Shown: positions 9,930 through 17,597 of the stretch, piece by piece
How positions within the stretch are numbered: position 1 is the stretch's first letter
How the letters are laid out: each line of letters starts with the position of its first letter
IMG/VR virus record: IMGVR_UViG_3300037486_000592
Location: 1-26,231 of that record
DNA: 26,231 nucleotides
Source of the DNA: a virus
Direction: 5' to 3' (one strand)
Made by a program: the position numbers and the translations under genes
Notes under the pieces: model-generated
What the model was told of the DNA's origin: nothing
What the model saw: only the letters and a program-made list of their open reading frames with translations
Database searches by the model: none

Positions 9930-10361
9930 ATGGCAGTAACAAAAGTAAAAGGGTACAACCTGAACCTGAAATGGGGTACCAAGCTGATCCGAGGTCTTGT
10001 AACCACCGGGCTTAAAGTGAAGCCCAATTATGAGGAGATCCTTCTGAAATCCAGCTCCGGCGTTCCGGCTGATGAACTGATTGACTATGATGTTGAGATC
10101 ACATTCAGCGGTCAGACCTATGAGCGCGACTCAACTGAGACAGCAACATACGAGGACTTTGAAACTCTTCGCCAGGCTGCTTCAGTAGGAGCGGAAGTGG
10201 CATTCGTTTATGGTCGCTTCACCTCAGGAGAGAAGATCGTTACCGGCACCGGGCAGATCCAGGAGTATTCCGAAGAAGGAAACTCGAAGGATACCGGGTC
10301 ATTCAGCGGAAGCATCAAAGCCAAGAAGGGATCCGTAGGGTTCATAACCTACACGGCATAA
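9930..10361 (+). CDS. Major tail tube protein
   Basis: Hexamer-forming tube subunit, 143 residues. It begins AVTKVKGYNLNLKWG and contains ITFSGQTYERDS, FVYGRFTSGEKIVTG and YSEEGNSKDTGSFSGSIKAKKG, typical of the tail tube beta-barrel with its late GNSKDTG loop. Position between the tail terminator and the tail assembly chaperone pair is the standard place. The first 138 residues are closely repeated (about 70 percent identical by eye) at the N-terminus of the 590-residue protein at 15105, including the same start region at the DNA level, so the two arose by duplication. Confidence 0.92.
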   Translation: MAVTKVKGYNLNLKWGTKLIRGLVTTGLKVKPNYEEILLKSSSGVPADELIDYDVEITFSGQTYERDSTETATYEDFETLRQAASVGAEVAFVYGRFTSGEKIVTGTGQIQEYSEEGNSKDTGSFSGSIKAKKGSVGFITYTA

Positions 10362-10713: not shown

Positions 10714-11105
10714 ATGTCAGTGAGATAAGCCGCTTCACCTGGACATATATGAGGCGCTTTTCCCTGGGTTGCCTCAGATACTCGCCGGCAAGATTTGGTA
10801 AGATGATGGTCGGCGATTTCCTTGACGCGATGATTGGTTATAACGAAGGGGAGAGCGAAAGGATCAAAGCCCTGGCTGAGCTGATAAGAATGTCAACTGC
10901 CATACAGGTGAATATTCAGCTTGAGCGCAGGGACAAGGTAACAGCTCATGATCTCTGGCCGTTCCCCTGGGATAAGGAGCCATCTCATAAGATTGAGATC
11001 ATAACCGAGGAGGAGAAGAAAAAGAGAGAAGATGCAATGTTGAAAGTATTGAATAAGATAATGCCAGATCCTATAAAGAATGGGAACAGTAATATCAAAC
11101 CTTAA
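10363..11105 (+). CDS. Tail assembly chaperone, -1 frameshift form (gpGT-like)
   Basis: Predicted fusion made by a -1 ribosomal shift on A-AAA-AAA at 10656-10662. After the shift the frame stays open to 11105, reading KKKPGSGAATADILQEEGLD, then EISRFTWTYMRRFS, SPARFGKMMVGDFLDAMIGY and a charged C-terminus. The product is about 247 residues. The -1 frame is open well upstream of the first ATG in it (10749), and the protein-like sequence before that ATG (RFTWTYMRRF) argues that translation enters by shifting and not by a separate start. Partner proteins are expected to be the tape measure and the tail tube. The 3' end overlaps the tape measure start by 26 bases. Confidence 0.82.
10656..10662 (+). 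other. Programmed -1 frameshift slippery site
   Basis: The heptamer A-AAA-AAA lies within a nine-adenine run, read GGA CAA AAA AAA AGC in the zero frame. Two short GC hairpins could follow: CCCG/CGGG at 10665-10675 and GCGG/CCGC at 10677-10687. Neither is convincing as a stimulator. Direction and gene position match the lambda G/GT arrangement. Confidence 0.8.
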
Positions 11106-12633
11106 AGCGCGTTTCGGCGTCGATACTTCAGATTTTAAGAAGGGTCTGAAGGACGGCGAAAAAGCTGTATCCGATTTTAAGGGAGCAGCAGGGGATATCC
11201 TCGAGAAGTTCGCTGCCATGTTCGGGGTGAACATGAGCGGGGTTAATGATGCCATCGGCACGGCAGGCAAGTCACTTAATTTTTTCAGCACGTCACTCAA
11301 GGGAGCTGCCACCGGGGGCAATGTCCTGAGCATTGCCATGAAGGCCCTGAAGGTCGCTCTCATATCAACTGGCATCGGTGCCCTGATTGTTGCCCTGGGA
11401 TCCCTGATTGCTTATTTCACGAAATCAGGCGAGGGGGCTGATAAGTTTGCGAAGATCATGGCCCAGGTCAAATCTGTGTTTGATAACCTGATTGAGGTGG
11501 TTGTCCAGTTCGGTGGTGGCCTGGTTGATATATTCACCGGTAAGTTCAAAGAGGGATGGGAGAAGATGAAAGATGCCTTCAAGGGCATCGGGGAAGAGAT
11601 CAGGACTGACTGGCAGGAGGCCGGCAAGCTTGCCGAGGCGGAGGACGCCTTGGAGGACCGTGAGATCGCATTAATAAACTCTCTTGAAGAGCGTCGGGCC
11701 AAGGTCGCTGAACTGCGTCTCCTGGCAAAGGAAGAGCAGGAGGACAGCAAGAAGAAGCTAAGTCTGCTCCAGGAGGCCGAGAAGATAACGAAGGGCGTAT
11801 ATGCTGACCAGGTATCCCTGGAACAGGAGCGCCTCAGGATCATGAAGGAGAAACTCGCCCTTCAGACCTCGGATCCCACAGATGAACAGAGACGCGAAGT
11901 TGCTGAACAGGAGGCAAAGATCAACAGCTTGCTGAGAGAACAGTCAATGGAGCTCAAGGGTATAGCCCGGGAGAAGAATACAGCTGTAGCTGCTGTCGAG
12001 AAAGAGCTTGCCCTGGAGAAGGAAAAGGAGAAGGTCCTGGGCAAGATGGTTGAGTCTGCCAAGGCTCAGTCTATGCAGTTATTTGATGTAAGCAAGATAA
12101 GCGGCCAGCTCGCCCAGGTGCAGACGATCGTCACGGATACGATGACAACCCTCGAGAAGTCACTTGTCGATACGGTGAATAATACTTTCGATAACCTTGC
12201 CGTGGGCCTTGGTGAATTTTTCGGCAAACTTGCCACTGGGCAGGTAGGTGTTGAGGGATTTGGTCAGATGGTTGCCGGAGTCTTTGCCGATATGGCAATT
12301 ACAGTTGGCAAGATAGCGATCGCAACAGGGATCGCTACCCTTGGGATCAAGGCGGCCCTGGAGACTTTGAACCCTGCGGTTGCAATAGCTGCAGGAATTG
12401 CCCTGGTTGCCCTGGGCACTGCTGTTAAGGGCGCTCTTTCAAATGTTGCATCCGGGGGATCGGCAAGCACCACAGCGGTAGCAGCAGCAGGTAGCAGCTT
12501 TACCTATGACAACCGGACCCCGGCAGGGGCAGCTGCCAATAAGTTTGAGATATCAGGTAAACTGACAGCAGAAGGCAGTGACCTGGTATATGTTTTCAAT
12601 AAAGAGAATGCAAGGCGCAAGGCTACGACCTGA
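11080..12633 (+). CDS. Tail tape measure protein
   Basis: Tail length-determining protein and probable DNA-injection aid. It is 517 residues, helix-rich, with a TMP-like N-terminus (LKARFGVDTSDFKKGLKDGE). Hydrophobic stretches lie at about 85-113 (VALISTGIGALIVALGSLIAYF region) and 420-470. A long charged coiled coil lies between about 195 and 340, and a Gly/Ala/Ser-rich segment leads to the C-terminus. At the usual 0.15 nm per residue it would specify a tail of about 78 nm, short for a siphovirus. No peptidoglycan hydrolase domain is visible. It starts inside the chaperone gene and its stop overlaps the next start as TGATG. Confidence 0.92.
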   Translation: MGTVISNLKARFGVDTSDFKKGLKDGEKAVSDFKGAAGDILEKFAAMFGVNMSGVNDAIGTAGKSLNFFSTSLKGAATGGNVLSIAMKALKVALISTGIGALIVALGSLIAYFTKSGEGADKFAKIMAQVKSVFDNLIEVVVQFGGGLVDIFTGKFKEGWEKMKDAFKGIGEEIRTDWQEAGKLAEAEDALEDREIALINSLEERRAKVAELRLLAKEEQEDSKKKLSLLQEAEKITKGVYADQVSLEQERLRIMKEKLALQTSDPTDEQRREVAEQEAKINSLLREQSMELKGIAREKNTAVAAVEKELALEKEKEKVLGKMVESAKAQSMQLFDVSKISGQLAQVQTIVTDTMTTLEKSLVDTVNNTFDNLAVGLGEFFGKLATGQVGVEGFGQMVAGVFADMAITVGKIAIATGIATLGIKAALETLNPAVAIAAGIALVALGTAVKGALSNVASGGSASTTAVAAAGSSFTYDNRTPAGAAANKFEISGKLTAEGSDLVYVFNKENARRKATT

Positions 12634-15092
12634 TGGCATACGGGACAAAATATCAGCTTTACTGCAAGGGCAAGGATGGCGTGACCTCTAAGGTGGTCAT
12701 CTCTGAGGACGACTATACCGGATCTGAAATAGACCGCAATGTCCCGTACAATCCTTTTATCCTGCGCAAAGATGCTGCCGCTGTCATCTGTGGTACTTCA
12801 CTTGAGTTCCTGATCAGGGAAGAGACGGATTTCGAGTTCCTTGAGTTCTATACAAACAACCCGAAGAAATATAAGATTGAGTTCTATTGGCCGTCTACCA
12901 CACTGCTCTGGACCGGATGGCTGAACACCCAGCAATATGAGGTTCCATACAAGCCCGGGCCCACCAACGTCAGGCTCCAGGCAACAGATGGCCTGGGCCT
13001 GCTCAAAGAAGAAGATTTTACACTGACGGGAACCAACTCACAGCTGGCCATCATTCGCCATTGCATTGATAAGATTGGGATCTCGCTTTCATATTCCATT
13101 GCAATCAATCTCTGGGAGGTTAATCATGATGATGATTACTGTCCCCTGGCACAGACCTATGAGGATTGCGAGAAGTTTGAGGACATGAACTGCTATGAGG
13201 TACTTGAAGCTTTACTTAAAAAGTTTGATGCATCAATAACGCAATGGGCCAACAAGTGGTATATCACATCATATAAGGATAAAAAAGTAACCAGGCTGAT
13301 TTATACATCAGCTGGAGTATACAGTACCACTGAAGCTGCAGCCACGGTCCTGGATCTCGGGATGAAAGGAGAGAGCGGGGTGGAGGTTTATCCAAACGGT
13401 TGCCTGACTTTATCCCTGATGGCAGGAGGGAAGAGGGTACACATCACCAGCGACTATGGCCTGAAAACGTCGGTGCTTGACAATTACAGGTTCGAGCAGT
13501 ATGCATCATTGATGTTTACGGGCTGGACCAAGAGCGGAACATTCACAGTTTACCAGGGACTGAAGGACGGTACATATTATGCCGTTCTAAGCAGCTATTC
13601 AAATGTTGATACAGATTATATATACCAGGCGAAATCAGTCGTGAACGGTTATGGCCAGGATTTCAAGTTTGATATTGATGTCTGCCCAATAGGCTACTCT
13701 CTTTTCACTTATAAGTTCACCGCCATCTCGATGCAGGTCAGGATCCAGGTGACCTTGCTTGTAGGCAGCACAACTTATTATCTAACCACATCAGGATGGG
13801 GGACAACTGCTGGCTATATCACCCAGACGATCACATCAGCAATCTTTGCCAGTGATATTGTCTGGAGCAGGATATCAATAGCGACGAATGATCTTCCGGG
13901 GAATGGTACGCTCACAGTGAAACTGATGAGGTTTAAATCACCGACTCCGGGAACGAGCATTCACTATATCGGGGTTGCCTTTGCGCTTCCTTCGCCACAC
14001 TTTCTGTATAACAGCGAGGAGTTCGAGGATGCATTTGATGACACTGCAAACTTTGATGACAGCACCGAGTCGGCAGACCTTGAGGACATTGAAGTGATAG
14101 GAGCTGATGTGCCCACTTATGAAAATGCAAGCATGCTATATGATCGGGTGATGAGGCTGAGCACCGGCGTGCCGACTGTATCATGGCGATTTTCTCAGTC
14201 TGATACAGCATACACCCTGATCAATGCCCTGGTAAAGATGTTGGCCAGCCGTAATCTTCACGCCAGGCAACAGCTCAGGGGCACGATCAAGGGATCCGGT
14301 ATCACTTTCCAGAGTCTGATAAAGCATGCTTATAACAGCAATCGCGAGTTTGAATTATATGAATGCGAGTGGGATGTCTTCGCTGCGAAGTTTGCAGTGA
14401 CACTGCTTGAGTTCATTGCCTTCGCTGACCAGGATGTGACATTCGATTCCGGCACCATCCTGGGCGATGCCGCGAACCTGACGGTCGCATCTGTCAGCTG
14501 CGGATCTGGCTTCTTCGTAAGCGATCCAATTAATGCTACAGTTCATATTGATAACTCGGGAGATAGCCCAGGACAACAGTTTATCGACTGGAAGGTGGTC
14601 GACGGATCCGACGTCACCCAGAGCAGTGGCACCCATCTCTCCGGGATTATCCCGGCATCAGATGATGAGGATCATGTGATCTCAATGTATGCGCCATCAA
14701 CAGCCGGAACCTATTATGTGAAAGCTAAGATATCCACGGACTCATCCTGGGTAAGCAGCTCAGCGATAACCGTAGCCGCAGCGCCTGATGTGACCCTTGA
14801 AGCTATATATACTGTTGCTGATGGTTATGCAGGTGGCGACTTGACCATTATGTTTGCGGCTACTAATGCCGGAGGCGCAGGGTTAATGACAGTATTCTGG
14901 CGGATAAGAGACTCAAGCCATAACACTTTTGATGGCGGATCTGGAAATTTCTATTTTTCTGTAGGCGACGCAGATTATTATTACAATGGTTTATACTATC
15001 CGGGCTCTCCAGATACAGATTATGATGTTGAGCTCTCCCTTGACGGATATAACTGGATCACAAGTAATCATTTTGAAAGTTTATCACCTTGA
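12633..15092 (+). CDS. Distal tail/tip protein with C-terminal Ig-like domains
   Basis: An 819-residue protein directly after the tape measure, where distal tail and hub proteins lie. The N-terminal 250 residues (YGTKYQLYCKGKDGVTSKVVI, WTGWLNTQQYEVPY, VRLQATDGLGLLKEEDF, YEVLEALLKKF) resemble the first tail-tip protein of Bacteroides-type phages and suggest baseplate-hub folds. The middle (about 290-470) is beta-rich. Two tandem Ig/CARDB-like domains close the protein at about 611-719 (ending SSAITVAA) and 720-819, each with a Tyr/Asp-rich strand pattern. Such domains often sit on the virion surface and bind glycans. A role as tip protein is inferred mainly from position. Confidence 0.78.
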   Translation: MAYGTKYQLYCKGKDGVTSKVVISEDDYTGSEIDRNVPYNPFILRKDAAAVICGTSLEFLIREETDFEFLEFYTNNPKKYKIEFYWPSTTLLWTGWLNTQQYEVPYKPGPTNVRLQATDGLGLLKEEDFTLTGTNSQLAIIRHCIDKIGISLSYSIAINLWEVNHDDDYCPLAQTYEDCEKFEDMNCYEVLEALLKKFDASITQWANKWYITSYKDKKVTRLIYTSAGVYSTTEAAATVLDLGMKGESGVEVYPNGCLTLSLMAGGKRVHITSDYGLKTSVLDNYRFEQYASLMFTGWTKSGTFTVYQGLKDGTYYAVLSSYSNVDTDYIYQAKSVVNGYGQDFKFDIDVCPIGYSLFTYKFTAISMQVRIQVTLLVGSTTYYLTTSGWGTTAGYITQTITSAIFASDIVWSRISIATNDLPGNGTLTVKLMRFKSPTPGTSIHYIGVAFALPSPHFLYNSEEFEDAFDDTANFDDSTESADLEDIEVIGADVPTYENASMLYDRVMRLSTGVPTVSWRFSQSDTAYTLINALVKMLASRNLHARQQLRGTIKGSGITFQSLIKHAYNSNREFELYECEWDVFAAKFAVTLLEFIAFADQDVTFDSGTILGDAANLTVASVSCGSGFFVSDPINATVHIDNSGDSPGQQFIDWKVVDGSDVTQSSGTHLSGIIPASDDEDHVISMYAPSTAGTYYVKAKISTDSSWVSSSAITVAAAPDVTLEAIYTVADGYAGGDLTIMFAATNAGGAGLMTVFWRIRDSSHNTFDGGSGNFYFSVGDADYYYNGLYYPGSPDTDYDVELSLDGYNWITSNHFESLSP

Positions 15093-15104: not shown

Positions 15105-16877
15105 ATGGCAGTAACAAAGGTAAAGGGCTACATGCTCAATATAAAGTGGGGAGACAAGCTGATCCGCGGCCTGCAGACCAGCGGCATTAAGATGAAGCCT
15201 AACTATGAAGAGGCCCTATTGAAGGTCTTGAACGGATATCCACTGGATGAAGTTATCGATTATGACAGCGAGTTCACTGCCAGCGGCCAGACCTATGAAA
15301 TGGACTCAGGGGAGAGCGGAACCTATGAGGATTTTCAAACCCTCCGTGAAGCTGCAGCTGCGGGAGCTATTGTGGCATTTATCTATGGTAGGTTCACTAT
15401 AGGGGAGAATATTGTGACGGGGAATGCTCAAATTACTGATTATTCAGAGGAGGGCAACTCGAAAGATACTGGGACATACAGTATAACATTCAAAGCGGTC
15501 AGGGGTTCTGTTTCGTTCACGGCTCAGCCAAGTTCATTTATAAGTCAATATGGTGCTATATATGATGTGTTTGTGACAAAACCACCTTCCGATGTTGCTA
15601 CTGCACAAAATGCCATTGTTGCCTCTTTAGTGACTGCTGGTATCTGGGCAAAACTCGATCGTTTTTTCCTTTATCAAAATTACAGCAATGGCGATGGTGA
15701 AAGTTTAAAAGATTGGATACATCCAACAGGTGCAAGTGCCGAGCTGGCGATCGGTGCGGGTGGAACTACAGCACCAGCATTTACAAGCCTTAAAGGTTTC
15801 AAGGGTAATGGAGGTACGGCCAAAGGTTATATTATTTCTAATTATAATCCGTCAACTCAAGGTGTATTGTTTACTCAAAATTCCGCGACCGTTGGTGCTT
15901 ATATTATTACAAAAAGCGATGGCGGAGACATACTTATTGGTAATGCAGGTACAGGGAACACAGCACTTGCACCCTACTACGTTGGTTTTCGTTCCGCATT
16001 AAATAATTTAAGTGTTGATTGGACCGATAGGTCACCAAGCGTAGCTACCGGCCATGTCGCCATTGTAAGAGACGCTGCAAATAAGATTAATGTTTACAGG
16101 GGAAAGACTGAAAGTACAGATATAAGTTCAGAAAGTGCTGCGATAAACAATTTTGACCTTAATATACTGCGCGGGAATGGGAATTATTATTCTACCGCCG
16201 AAGTTGGTATGGCCTATATGGGTGGTGCTTTGACTGAATCTGAGATTGGTGTAATTAACGATGCAATGGTAGCTTATCAAGACGCACTTGAAGAATATAC
16301 TTACGACATATTGAATACGGCTGCCTTTTTGGGAGACAGTACCATAGGAACTTACGGAGCAGGGGCAGCTGTTTGCACCTTAATGAATGCAACGGGTAAG
16401 ACTTTTATAAATGCTGCAGTGTCCGGTGGTACTTTTGCGTCCCAATACGCAGCCTGGCAAGCCCTTGGAGCGAAGCGCAAGGTAATGGATTATGTGTTCA
16501 TTGAAATAGGCTTGAATGATATTGAAACATATACGGTACAGGAGTGCGCCGCATTGTGCCAGACTTTTGTAAATAATATACGTTCTGATATTGGCACTGG
16601 TGGACGCATTGTACTCTGCACAATGACACCGGCCAGAGGGAGTTCTCGTGATTATAATAAGTGGCTTGGACTTAATGAAGCTATAATGGGTACCGGTTCT
16701 TATGCTATAACTGGGGCTGATAGACTATGTGATACTGCTAATTCAATCCTTAATGATGGCAGCGGTTATTTAAAGGAAGAGTACAGGTTAGCTGGAGACT
16801 ATTTACATGAAAATAATGCTGGCAGGCAAGTGATTGCTAATATGTGGGATGCGATAATAAACGAGTTGGGGTTTTAA
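15105..16877 (+). CDS. Tail-tube domain fused to LamG-like and SGNH esterase domains
   Basis: A 590-residue three-part protein. Residues 1-140 repeat the major tail tube protein almost over its full length (AVTKVKGYMLNIKWG, FIYGRFTIGENIVTG, EEGNSKDTG). Residues about 150-395 look like a concanavalin/LamG-type beta sandwich ending in YMGGALTESEIGVINDAMVAY, a common end for such tail domains. Residues about 405-590 are an SGNH hydrolase: block I FLGDST with nucleophile Ser412, block II SGG at 440-442, block III GLND at 469-472, block V DYLH with Asp565 and His568. All catalytic positions are present. It probably deacetylates or de-esterifies host surface glycan at the tail. Codon use and base composition become AT-rich after about 15530, so the last two domains were probably acquired separately from the tube domain. 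Confidence 0.9.
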   Translation: MAVTKVKGYMLNIKWGDKLIRGLQTSGIKMKPNYEEALLKVLNGYPLDEVIDYDSEFTASGQTYEMDSGESGTYEDFQTLREAAAAGAIVAFIYGRFTIGENIVTGNAQITDYSEEGNSKDTGTYSITFKAVRGSVSFTAQPSSFISQYGAIYDVFVTKPPSDVATAQNAIVASLVTAGIWAKLDRFFLYQNYSNGDGESLKDWIHPTGASAELAIGAGGTTAPAFTSLKGFKGNGGTAKGYIISNYNPSTQGVLFTQNSATVGAYIITKSDGGDILIGNAGTGNTALAPYYVGFRSALNNLSVDWTDRSPSVATGHVAIVRDAANKINVYRGKTESTDISSESAAINNFDLNILRGNGNYYSTAEVGMAYMGGALTESEIGVINDAMVAYQDALEEYTYDILNTAAFLGDSTIGTYGAGAAVCTLMNATGKTFINAAVSGGTFASQYAAWQALGAKRKVMDYVFIEIGLNDIETYTVQECAALCQTFVNNIRSDIGTGGRIVLCTMTPARGSSRDYNKWLGLNEAIMGTGSYAITGADRLCDTANSILNDGSGYLKEEYRLAGDYLHENNAGRQVIANMWDAIINELGF

Positions 16878-16893
16878 ATTATATCAATTTAAA
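16873..16893. terminator. AT-rich dyad between convergent genes
   Basis: TTTAAATT (16873-16880) and AATTTAAA (16886-16893) form an 8-base dyad around ATATC. The stop codons of both convergent SGNH genes lie within it. It may act as a weak two-way terminator, though it has no GC in the stem. Confidence 0.35.
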
Positions 16894-17597
16894 TATGGTT
16901 CCAAAATCTTCCTTAAAAGCAAGTACCCACTGCCATTTAAATGGAGGCCGTCAAAGTAATAATTTGGTTTTAAATTATTATCTAAAACAAAGTATGGGTA
17001 TAGATCAATGAATGTTATATACCTCGAGTTTGCTATATTTTTTATCTTATGATTAAGAATTTGAATAGTATCGTTGGAAAGTCCCTTCCAGTTGTTAACG
17101 GGAAGGACACTCAGAATATAAAGTTTGGTTACTGGACAATCCTTTTCAATAATACTGACAATGCTATCAATATTAGATGCAATCTCAGAGGAATATTTTT
17201 TTAATAAAAGATCATTTATGCCAATTTCAAGAAATATTTTACGAGGACAGCATTGCGTAACTTCAAATAGACGTTGCATTACTCCTGTGGTTGCATCACC
17301 AGAAATGCCTCTGTTTATTATTTCTCCATTATGGAATAGTTCACTCCATTCGCACCTTTCAGTAATGGAATTACCTATAAATACGATATCGTTGGAGTCT
17401 ATTGGAATTACTTCAAACAAAGAAACCCGGGATCGCCAATGGTTGTCTATTTTGAAATCAGTTTGCAGTTCTTTCCCTCTGAGTTGGCTTGTTTTAGCTT
17501 CGAGATATTTCATACCTCCTTTTTTGTATACGGCAAATCCAGCGAGGCATATAAACAGAACATTCAAAATAAGTGAGGCAATAAAATACTTTTTCAT
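16884..17597 (-). CDS. Membrane-anchored SGNH/GDSL hydrolase (lysogenic conversion candidate)
   Basis: The only gene on the minus strand, 237 residues. A positively charged start (MKKY) and a hydrophobic run at about 5-24 form an uncleaved signal anchor or signal peptide, placing the enzyme in the periplasm or cell surface. The SGNH blocks are IVFIGNSIT with nucleophile Ser77 (GNS in place of GDS, a common variant), NRGISGDAT around 95-103, GIND at 126-129, and DGLH with Asp216 and His219. The type matches acetylhydrolases of host surface glycans and is not a virion domain. It has its own promoter and opposite orientation inside the late region, the signature of a gene expressed from the prophage. 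Low GC compared with neighbours points to later acquisition. The acetyl or acyl substrate is unknown. Confidence 0.88.
   Translation of the reverse strand: MKKYFIASLILNVLFICLAGFAVYKKGGMKYLEAKTSQLRGKELQTDFKIDNHWRSRVSLFEVIPIDSNDIVFIGNSITERCEWSELFHNGEIINRGISGDATTGVMQRLFEVTQCCPRKIFLEIGINDLLLKKYSSEIASNIDSIVSIIEKDCPVTKLYILSVLPVNNWKGLSNDTIQILNHKIKNIANSRYITFIDLYPYFVLDNNLKPNYYFDGLHLNGSGYLLLRKILEPYLN

What the first reader, a model, noticed from the sequence alone, without database searches (positions are those of the whole stretch)
15105..16877. A second tail-tube domain used as a carrier for a LamG-like and an SGNH esterase domain
The first 140 residues repeat the major tail tube protein (9930-10361) at about 70 percent identity by eye, including near-identical DNA at the start. 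The rest is a LamG-like region and an SGNH hydrolase with a full catalytic set (Ser412, Asp565, His568). This suggests a duplicated tube subunit that carries an enzyme, either placed within the tube so the tail is decorated, or forming the ring at the tip. I know of tube proteins with Ig-like extensions, but an esterase on a tube paralogue looks unusual.
Basis: partly seen in the sequence, partly recalled or inferred. Interest (0 to 1): 0.85.

Follow-up and report, generated by a model that had tools for sequence, protein, structure and literature searches.

The report
Tail-tube paralogue carrying lectin and esterase
A Bacteroidota-type phage has copied the protein that builds its tail tube and fused the copy to a sugar-binding-like domain and an esterase-like domain; relatives use the same genome slot for tube copies with other cargo, which suggests a reusable way of hanging adhesins and enzymes on a tail.

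Summary
ORF 15105-16877 (590 aa) begins with a gapless 138-residue copy of the phage's own major tail protein (MTP, 9930-10361; 97/138 identical, E 1e-62). A LamG/ConA-like jelly roll (residues ~145-394) and an SGNH hydrolase domain (~405-585) with Ser412, Asn471, Asp565 and His568 follow. The tube domain is under purifying selection and keeps 49 of 53 positions invariant among subfamily MTPs. The gene sits 12 bases behind a gpJ/Tal-like hub gene. In relatives the same slot repeatedly holds a second tube domain with other C-terminal parts (FN3-like/beta-helix, another domain, 70-95 aa tails); Flavobacterium phage 11b (gp44) and Cellulophaga phage phi10:1 (gp089) have one too. These post-hub tubes do not form one clade (p-AU 0.0002), so the slot was filled more than once. 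Elsewhere tube domains head fibre-like proteins of 1077-1504 aa. Best reading: a tube-domain anchor mounts lectin-esterase cargo on the tail, in a ring near the tip or scattered along the tube. Virion incorporation, position and activity are untested. The principle resembles CBM-decorated MTPs, evolved Dits and specialised Hcps; an SGNH enzyme on a separate tube paralogue was not found elsewhere in what I searched. New variant of a known kind.

The parts
9930..10361 (+). Major tail protein (tube subunit), 143 aa; source family of the duplicated domain
   Evidence: PHROG 1407 major tail protein 1.2e-7; family profile hits RcGTA tail tube Rcc01691 3e-9 and Sf11 tail tube gp24 5.7e-7
11080..12633 (+). 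Tape measure protein, 517 aa
   Evidence: PHROG 3336 tail length tape measure protein 1.5e-7; syntenic in relatives
12633..15092 (+). Tail-tip hub protein, gpJ/Tal-like, 819 aa
   Evidence: AF2 pLDDT 87.5; three best Foldseek hits are lambda, T1 and Ur-lambda tail-tip complexes, with VgrG1 and diffocin baseplate lower down; low global TM-scores
15105..16877 (+). Fusion protein, 590 aa: tube domain + LamG-like jelly roll + SGNH hydrolase
15105..15521 (+). Tube domain of the fusion (residues 1-139)
   Evidence: 70% identity to the MTP over 138 gapless residues; 49 of 53 invariant MTP positions kept
15537..16286 (+). LamG/ConA-like jelly roll (residues 145-394), a mobile phage module
   Evidence: 71 ORFs in the fetched loci share it; AF2 and Foldseek
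16317..16859 (+). SGNH hydrolase domain (residues 405-585); S412, N471, D565, H568
   Evidence: PF13472 1.2e-7; 39% identical to the C-terminus of Vibrio phage 1.013.O gp28 with catalytic motifs conserved

Best explanation
The protein is a tail-anchored adhesin/enzyme. Its N-terminal domain is a duplicated tube subunit that can form or join hexameric tube-type rings. Its C-terminal jelly roll and SGNH esterase would then hang on the outside of the tail, about six copies per ring: the jelly roll binding a surface glycan and the SGNH domain removing ester groups (probably O-acetyl) from it during adsorption. Most likely the subunit makes one or a few rings next to the hub at the tail tip. Shown here: homology and conservation of the tube domain, the LamG-like fold, the SGNH catalytic set, the position behind the hub, and recurrence of post-hub tube paralogues with changing C-terminal parts. 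Inferred: presence in virions, ring formation, exact position, substrate and activity.
For: Gapless 70% identity to the own MTP, dN/dS about 0.09 (dS saturated), 49/53 invariant MTP positions kept. Post-hub second tube domain in 22 of 78 hub-bearing loci in at least six sequence groups (many near-duplicates), and in phages 11b and phi10:1. Different C-terminal parts on these tubes. Post-hub tubes are not one clade, p-AU 0.0002. Hub resembles lambda-type tail-tip proteins. SGNH domains on phage tail fibres are active esterases (PMC13123978); MTP extensions with CBMs bind hosts (PMC6669499).
Against: No virion proteomics for this phage or for a close relative. No multimer model could be run. Only 2 of about 19 subfamily loci have a post-hub tube, so it is dispensable. 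No second contig with the same three-domain order was found. The SGNH score is borderline and its AF2 model is poor.
Confidence: 0.55

Rival explanations
1. Minority tube subunit: the fusion co-polymerises with the MTP at scattered positions, decorating the whole tail like the frameshift-extended MTPs of SPP1 and lactococcal 936 phages.
For: The tube domain is closer to its own MTP (71%) than to the L081 carrier (67%), and L081's is 77% to its own MTP; MTP-like conservation; precedent in MTP-TpeX (PMC6669499).
Against: The gene lies with the tip genes, not with the MTP; in other groups the post-hub tube is only about 20-32% identical to the MTP of the same genome, which suggests a dedicated position there.
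Confidence: 0.27
2. Dit-like role: the post-hub tube domain replaces a distal tail protein and forms the essential ring joining tube and hub, the cargo being an 'evolved Dit' extension.
For: No separate Dit gene was recognised between tape measure and hub; the Dit ring domain shares the MTP fold (PMC7291167).
Against: Most subfamily members lack any post-hub tube, so it cannot be the only Dit; gene order is tape measure-hub-tube rather than tape measure-Dit-Tal.
Confidence: 0.1
3. Non-virion protein: the tube domain is a relic and the lectin-esterase acts free, for instance on debris or on the infected cell's surface.
For: No proteomic evidence of incorporation; a second, membrane-anchored-looking SGNH gene lies next to it.
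Against: Purifying selection on the tube domain with no gaps argues against a relic; no signal peptide is apparent at the N-terminus (it begins with the tube domain); it lies within the tail operon.
Confidence: 0.06
4. Assembly artefact: the contig joins an MTP-like fragment to an unrelated gene.
For: The window is a single metagenomic virus record; no second contig with the same three-domain order was found.
Against: The frame is intact with its own start behind the hub, and an independent contig (L081) has a post-hub tube fused to another C-terminal domain in the same place. The tube copy is 30% diverged from the MTP, so it is not a duplicated read stretch.
Confidence: 0.02

Closest known systems
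CBM-extended major tail proteins (TpeX of lactococcal 936 phages; SPP1 frameshift-extended MTP; lambda MTP Ig-like domain)
   Same: A subset of tube subunits bears a C-terminal surface-binding domain; TpeX was shown to bind host cells (PMC6669499)
   Different: There the extension is on the MTP itself or made by a programmed frameshift; here it is a separate paralogous gene behind the hub, and the cargo includes a hydrolase
Evolved Dit proteins of siphophages infecting Gram-positive bacteria
   Same: A ring protein with an MTP-like fold at the tail tip carries glycan-binding modules (PMC7291167)
   Different: CBMs are inserted in the galectin-like domain of Dit; here the carrier is a recognisable MTP paralogue with a C-terminal fusion, encoded after the hub
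Specialised (evolved) Hcp proteins of type VI secretion, Hcp-ET
   Same: Tube protein with a C-terminal enzyme domain; such fusions are scattered over the Hcp tree (PMC8262886)
   Different: T6SS tubes deliver effectors into cells; a phage tail would display the enzyme outside; no Hcp family relation was tested
Post-hub tube genes of Flavobacterium phage 11b (gp44) and Cellulophaga phage phi10:1 (gp089)
   Same: Second PHROG 1407 tube gene directly behind the hub gene
   Different: Short (170-171 aa), deeply diverged from their own MTP (25-32%), no enzyme domain
SGNH-bearing phage tail fibres (E. coli G7C gp63.1; Klebsiella prophage receptor-binding proteins)
   Same: Virion esterase of the SGNH fold thought to act on the receptor polysaccharide (PMC13123978)
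   Different: Those are trimeric fibres or spikes; here the anchor is a tube domain

Membership tests
Siphophage tail tube / major tail protein (PHROG 1407, PF06199, TP901-1 type) | Sequence homology of the N-terminal domain to tube proteins | tested here: met
   70% to the own MTP; PHROG 1407 3.8e-8; family profile hits RcGTA and Sf11 tail tubes. P0001 itself does not hit PF06199; several relatives do, above cut-off
Siphophage tail tube / major tail protein (PHROG 1407, PF06199, TP901-1 type) | Forms hexameric rings in the virion tail | not testable with these tools
   Single-chain prediction only; no proteomics at hand
SGNH hydrolase | Blocks I (GDS), II (G), III (GxND) and V (DxxH) | tested here: met
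   GDS 410-412, G441, N471 in IGLND, D565-H568; shared with the Vibrio phage homologue; PF13472 0.1 bit under cut-off
SGNH hydrolase | Fold and esterase activity | tested here: inconclusive
   AF2 confidence in this region is mostly below 60; weak profile hits to acetyl xylan esterases, best E 0.0022; activity not testable here
LamG/ConA-like lectin fold | Jelly-roll fold | tested here: met
   AF2 of the region with 30 relatives' rows; Foldseek to ConA/LamG-like domains of AbnA and trans-sialidase and to phage LamG/ConA proteins
LamG/ConA-like lectin fold | Glycan binding | not testable with these tools
   No ligand or binding data
MTP-TpeX / frameshift-decorated MTP | Extension made by a programmed frameshift from the MTP gene | tested here: not met
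   Separate gene with its own start, 4.7 kb downstream of the MTP
Evolved Dit | Dit protein encoded between tape measure and Tal, with CBM inserted in the galectin-like domain | tested here: not met
   Gene lies after the hub; MTP-type domain with a C-terminal fusion
Specialised Hcp (T6SS) | Hcp family tube domain in a T6SS locus | tested here: not met
   The locus is a phage with terminase, portal, HK97-type capsid and tape measure

The most novel reading that the evidence does not exclude
These phages keep a post-hub cargo slot that is repeatedly refilled by duplicates of tube genes, so that binding domains, enzymes and fibres are mounted on the tail through tube-type rings rather than through baseplate proteins or trimeric fibres: a modular display system based on tube paralogues, with enzyme-bearing subunits making part of the tail catalytic.
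Probability: 0.35. Interest if true: 0.78.

Novelty: new variant of a known kind. Interest (0 to 1): 0.58.

Why it matters
It joins two known ideas, decorated tail tubes and receptor-modifying esterases, in one gene, and gives sequence evidence that tube paralogues recurrently serve as carriers in these phages. If right, it names a class of likely host-range determinants that annotation now hides under 'major tail protein' (PHROG 1407 covers both MTPs and post-hub tube genes). It also offers a testable case of how a tail can hold two kinds of tube ring, a question shared with T6SS Hcp fusions.

Tried and rejected
A single-protein scan of viral contigs with the whole fusion found no relative, and a scan with the SGNH pair found none. 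tblastn of the fusion in 50,697 phage records gave no record covering 80% of it; the listed matches were to the LamG-like or SGNH parts. MTP tblastn gave no hit. A combined tube+LamG alignment for structure prediction was dropped because MAFFT laid the LamG rows on the tube domain (A5). The PDB hit 9occ_A named 'neck whiskers' suggested a neck position, but its paper calls gp24 the tail tube. Recent gene conversion between MTP and fusion was rejected because synonymous sites are saturated. A tube domain hidden in the hub was not found. Separate duplications in the window and L081 lineages are not shown: one origin is not rejected (p-AU 0.26). The L081 C-terminal domain is not detectably of the same LamG-like family. 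A search of 396 genomes drawn from the phylum of the L082 MAG found tube domains in 8 and no long fusion frame. Foldseek hits of the jelly roll to neurotoxin binding domains reflect the common ConA-like fold only. The SGNH part of the AF2 model was too poor to use.

Full report
OBSERVATION. The ORF at 15105-16877 is an intact 590-aa frame that starts 12 bases behind the preceding gene. Its first 138 residues align with the 143-aa MTP at 9930-10361 without a gap, 97 identical (70%), E 1.2e-62. The two genes share their first 14 bases; the first 20 codons are 78% identical in DNA, less than 'near-identical', and the synonymous distance over the domain is saturated (dS 2.8, dN 0.24). So the copy is old and kept by purifying selection. 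Of 53 positions invariant in six MTPs of the subfamily the fused domain keeps 49; leave-one-out for real MTPs gives 88-100%, so it is conserved like a tube subunit.

WHAT THE PARTS ARE. Tube: PHROG 1407 major tail protein; a 40-sequence profile hits the RcGTA tail tube Rcc01691 (3e-9), the Sf11 tail tube gp24 (5.7e-7) and 'Antigen A' 8qhs, whose nature I could not establish (1e-18). Middle: residues 145-394 belong to a module found in 71 ORFs of the fetched loci, standing alone, repeated two or three times, or at the C-terminus of proteins of about 1100 aa; none of the others has a tube domain. AF2 gives a jelly roll, and Foldseek matches ConA/LamG-like domains such as AbnA domain 4 and trans-sialidase and phage LamG/ConA proteins. 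C-terminus: an SGNH hydrolase (PF13472 1.2e-7, 0.1 bit under cut-off) with S412, G441, N471, D565 and H568, 39% identical to the C-terminus of a Vibrio phage tail-operon protein. Its weak solved relatives are acetyl xylan esterases, and it weakly hits a tail-fibre PHROG.

SURROUNDINGS. The order is terminase, portal, protease, HK97-type capsid, MTP, tape measure, 819-aa hub, fusion. The hub model (pLDDT 87.5) has lambda, T1 and Ur-lambda tail-tip proteins as its three best Foldseek hits by E-value, with VgrG1 and diffocin baseplate lower in the list; global TM-scores are low because the protein has many domains. I call it gpJ/Tal-like with moderate confidence.

RELATIVES. A scan with the hub gave 76 loci. 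Gene-order mapping shows a second tube domain directly after the hub in 22 of 78 hub-bearing loci, many of them near-duplicates, while many other contigs end before that slot. They fall into at least six sequence groups: window, L081 (451 aa), L024 (466+ aa with FN3-like and pectate-lyase-like parts), a 234-aa group, a 202-206-aa group, and L071 and L076. Flavobacterium phage 11b gp44 and Cellulophaga phage phi10:1 gp089 sit in the same slot. Curated models confirm the tube domain in several (PF06199 above cut-off in L034, L042, L060, L071). Other loci have tandem tube genes at the MTP position, or a tube domain at the head of fibre-like proteins of 1077-1504 aa upstream of the MTP.

EVOLUTION. 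On a 43-tip tree the post-hub tubes need five label changes, at least three forced by well-supported branches, and one clade is rejected (p-AU 0.0002). The window and L081 carriers group with their own MTPs (71% and 77%, against 67% to each other), and L024's carrier pairs with its own MTP (42%). The others are older, about 20-32% identical to the MTP of their genome. For window and L081 a single shared duplication is not rejected (p-AU 0.26). Fourteen further subfamily loci show that only these two have a post-hub tube; others have tandem MTPs or other proteins behind the hub. So the slot is variable and its tube occupants arose more than once.

MECHANISM. Shown: homology, conservation, domain order, position, recurrence. 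Inferred: the tube domain makes or joins a hexameric ring, placing about six jelly-roll/SGNH arms on the outside; the lectin binds and the esterase de-esterifies a surface glycan. Each step has a precedent: CBM-extended MTPs bind hosts (PMC6669499), evolved Dits carry CBMs on a ring with an MTP-like fold (PMC7291167), SGNH tail fibres are active esterases (PMC13123978), and Hcp tube proteins carry fused enzymes scattered over the Hcp tree (PMC8262886). Position is undecided: a tip ring is favoured by gene order and by the diverged groups, scattering in the tube by the similarity to the own MTP.

VERDICT. It works like a decorated MTP, an evolved Dit or a specialised Hcp. It is a member of the tail-tube family by its N-terminus and of the SGNH hydrolases by motif, and of none of the decorated-tail classes exactly. 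New variant of a known kind.

Noticed in passing
window 16884-17597 (-): A second, unrelated-looking SGNH hydrolase gene (PF13472 1.5e-20, PHROG 14008) on the opposite strand right behind the fusion, with an N-terminal hydrophobic stretch like a signal anchor; 21% identical to the fusion's SGNH domain.
   Followed up: partly
L060 2984-6217, L041 2752-6039, L030 3-4517: Tube domain at the head of 1077-1504-aa fibre-like proteins encoded upstream of the MTP (PF06199 1.7e-11 and PHROG 21973 tail protein 3e-32 in L060).
   Followed up: partly
L081 9454-10809 and L172 8095-8820: Both have a stretch of about 65-75 residues inserted in the tube domain at a similar place; the L081 insert weakly hits PHROG 165 tail sheath.
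   Followed up: no
L003 5494-6355, L168-L171, L175, L177, L011, L013, L014, L019, L046, L051: Two tandem tube genes at the MTP position; in the window's subfamily no locus has both tandem MTPs and a post-hub tube.
   Followed up: partly
L082 11517-12701, L175 8624-9730, L176 11517-12701, L007 13208-14428: Genes whose proteins read like family-2-type glycosyltransferases lie in the tail region behind the hub in relatives (not run through Pfam).
   Followed up: no
L083 10730-11242 and L086 11730-12245: Post-hub tube genes of phages 11b and phi10:1 match PHROG 1407 'major tail protein' far better (about 1e-35) than the window's MTP does, so this label does not tell MTP from post-hub paralogue.
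   Followed up: no
PDB 9occ_A: Sf11 gp24 is named 'putative neck whiskers protein' in the PDB entry while its paper describes it as the tail tube.
   Followed up: yes
G200:C29 616707-617273 (-): Two tube-domain matches follow each other in a 288-residue open frame of a genome drawn from the phylum of L082.
   Followed up: no
L096, L097, L124: The LamG-like module occurs as two or three tandem copies in single phage proteins.
   Followed up: no
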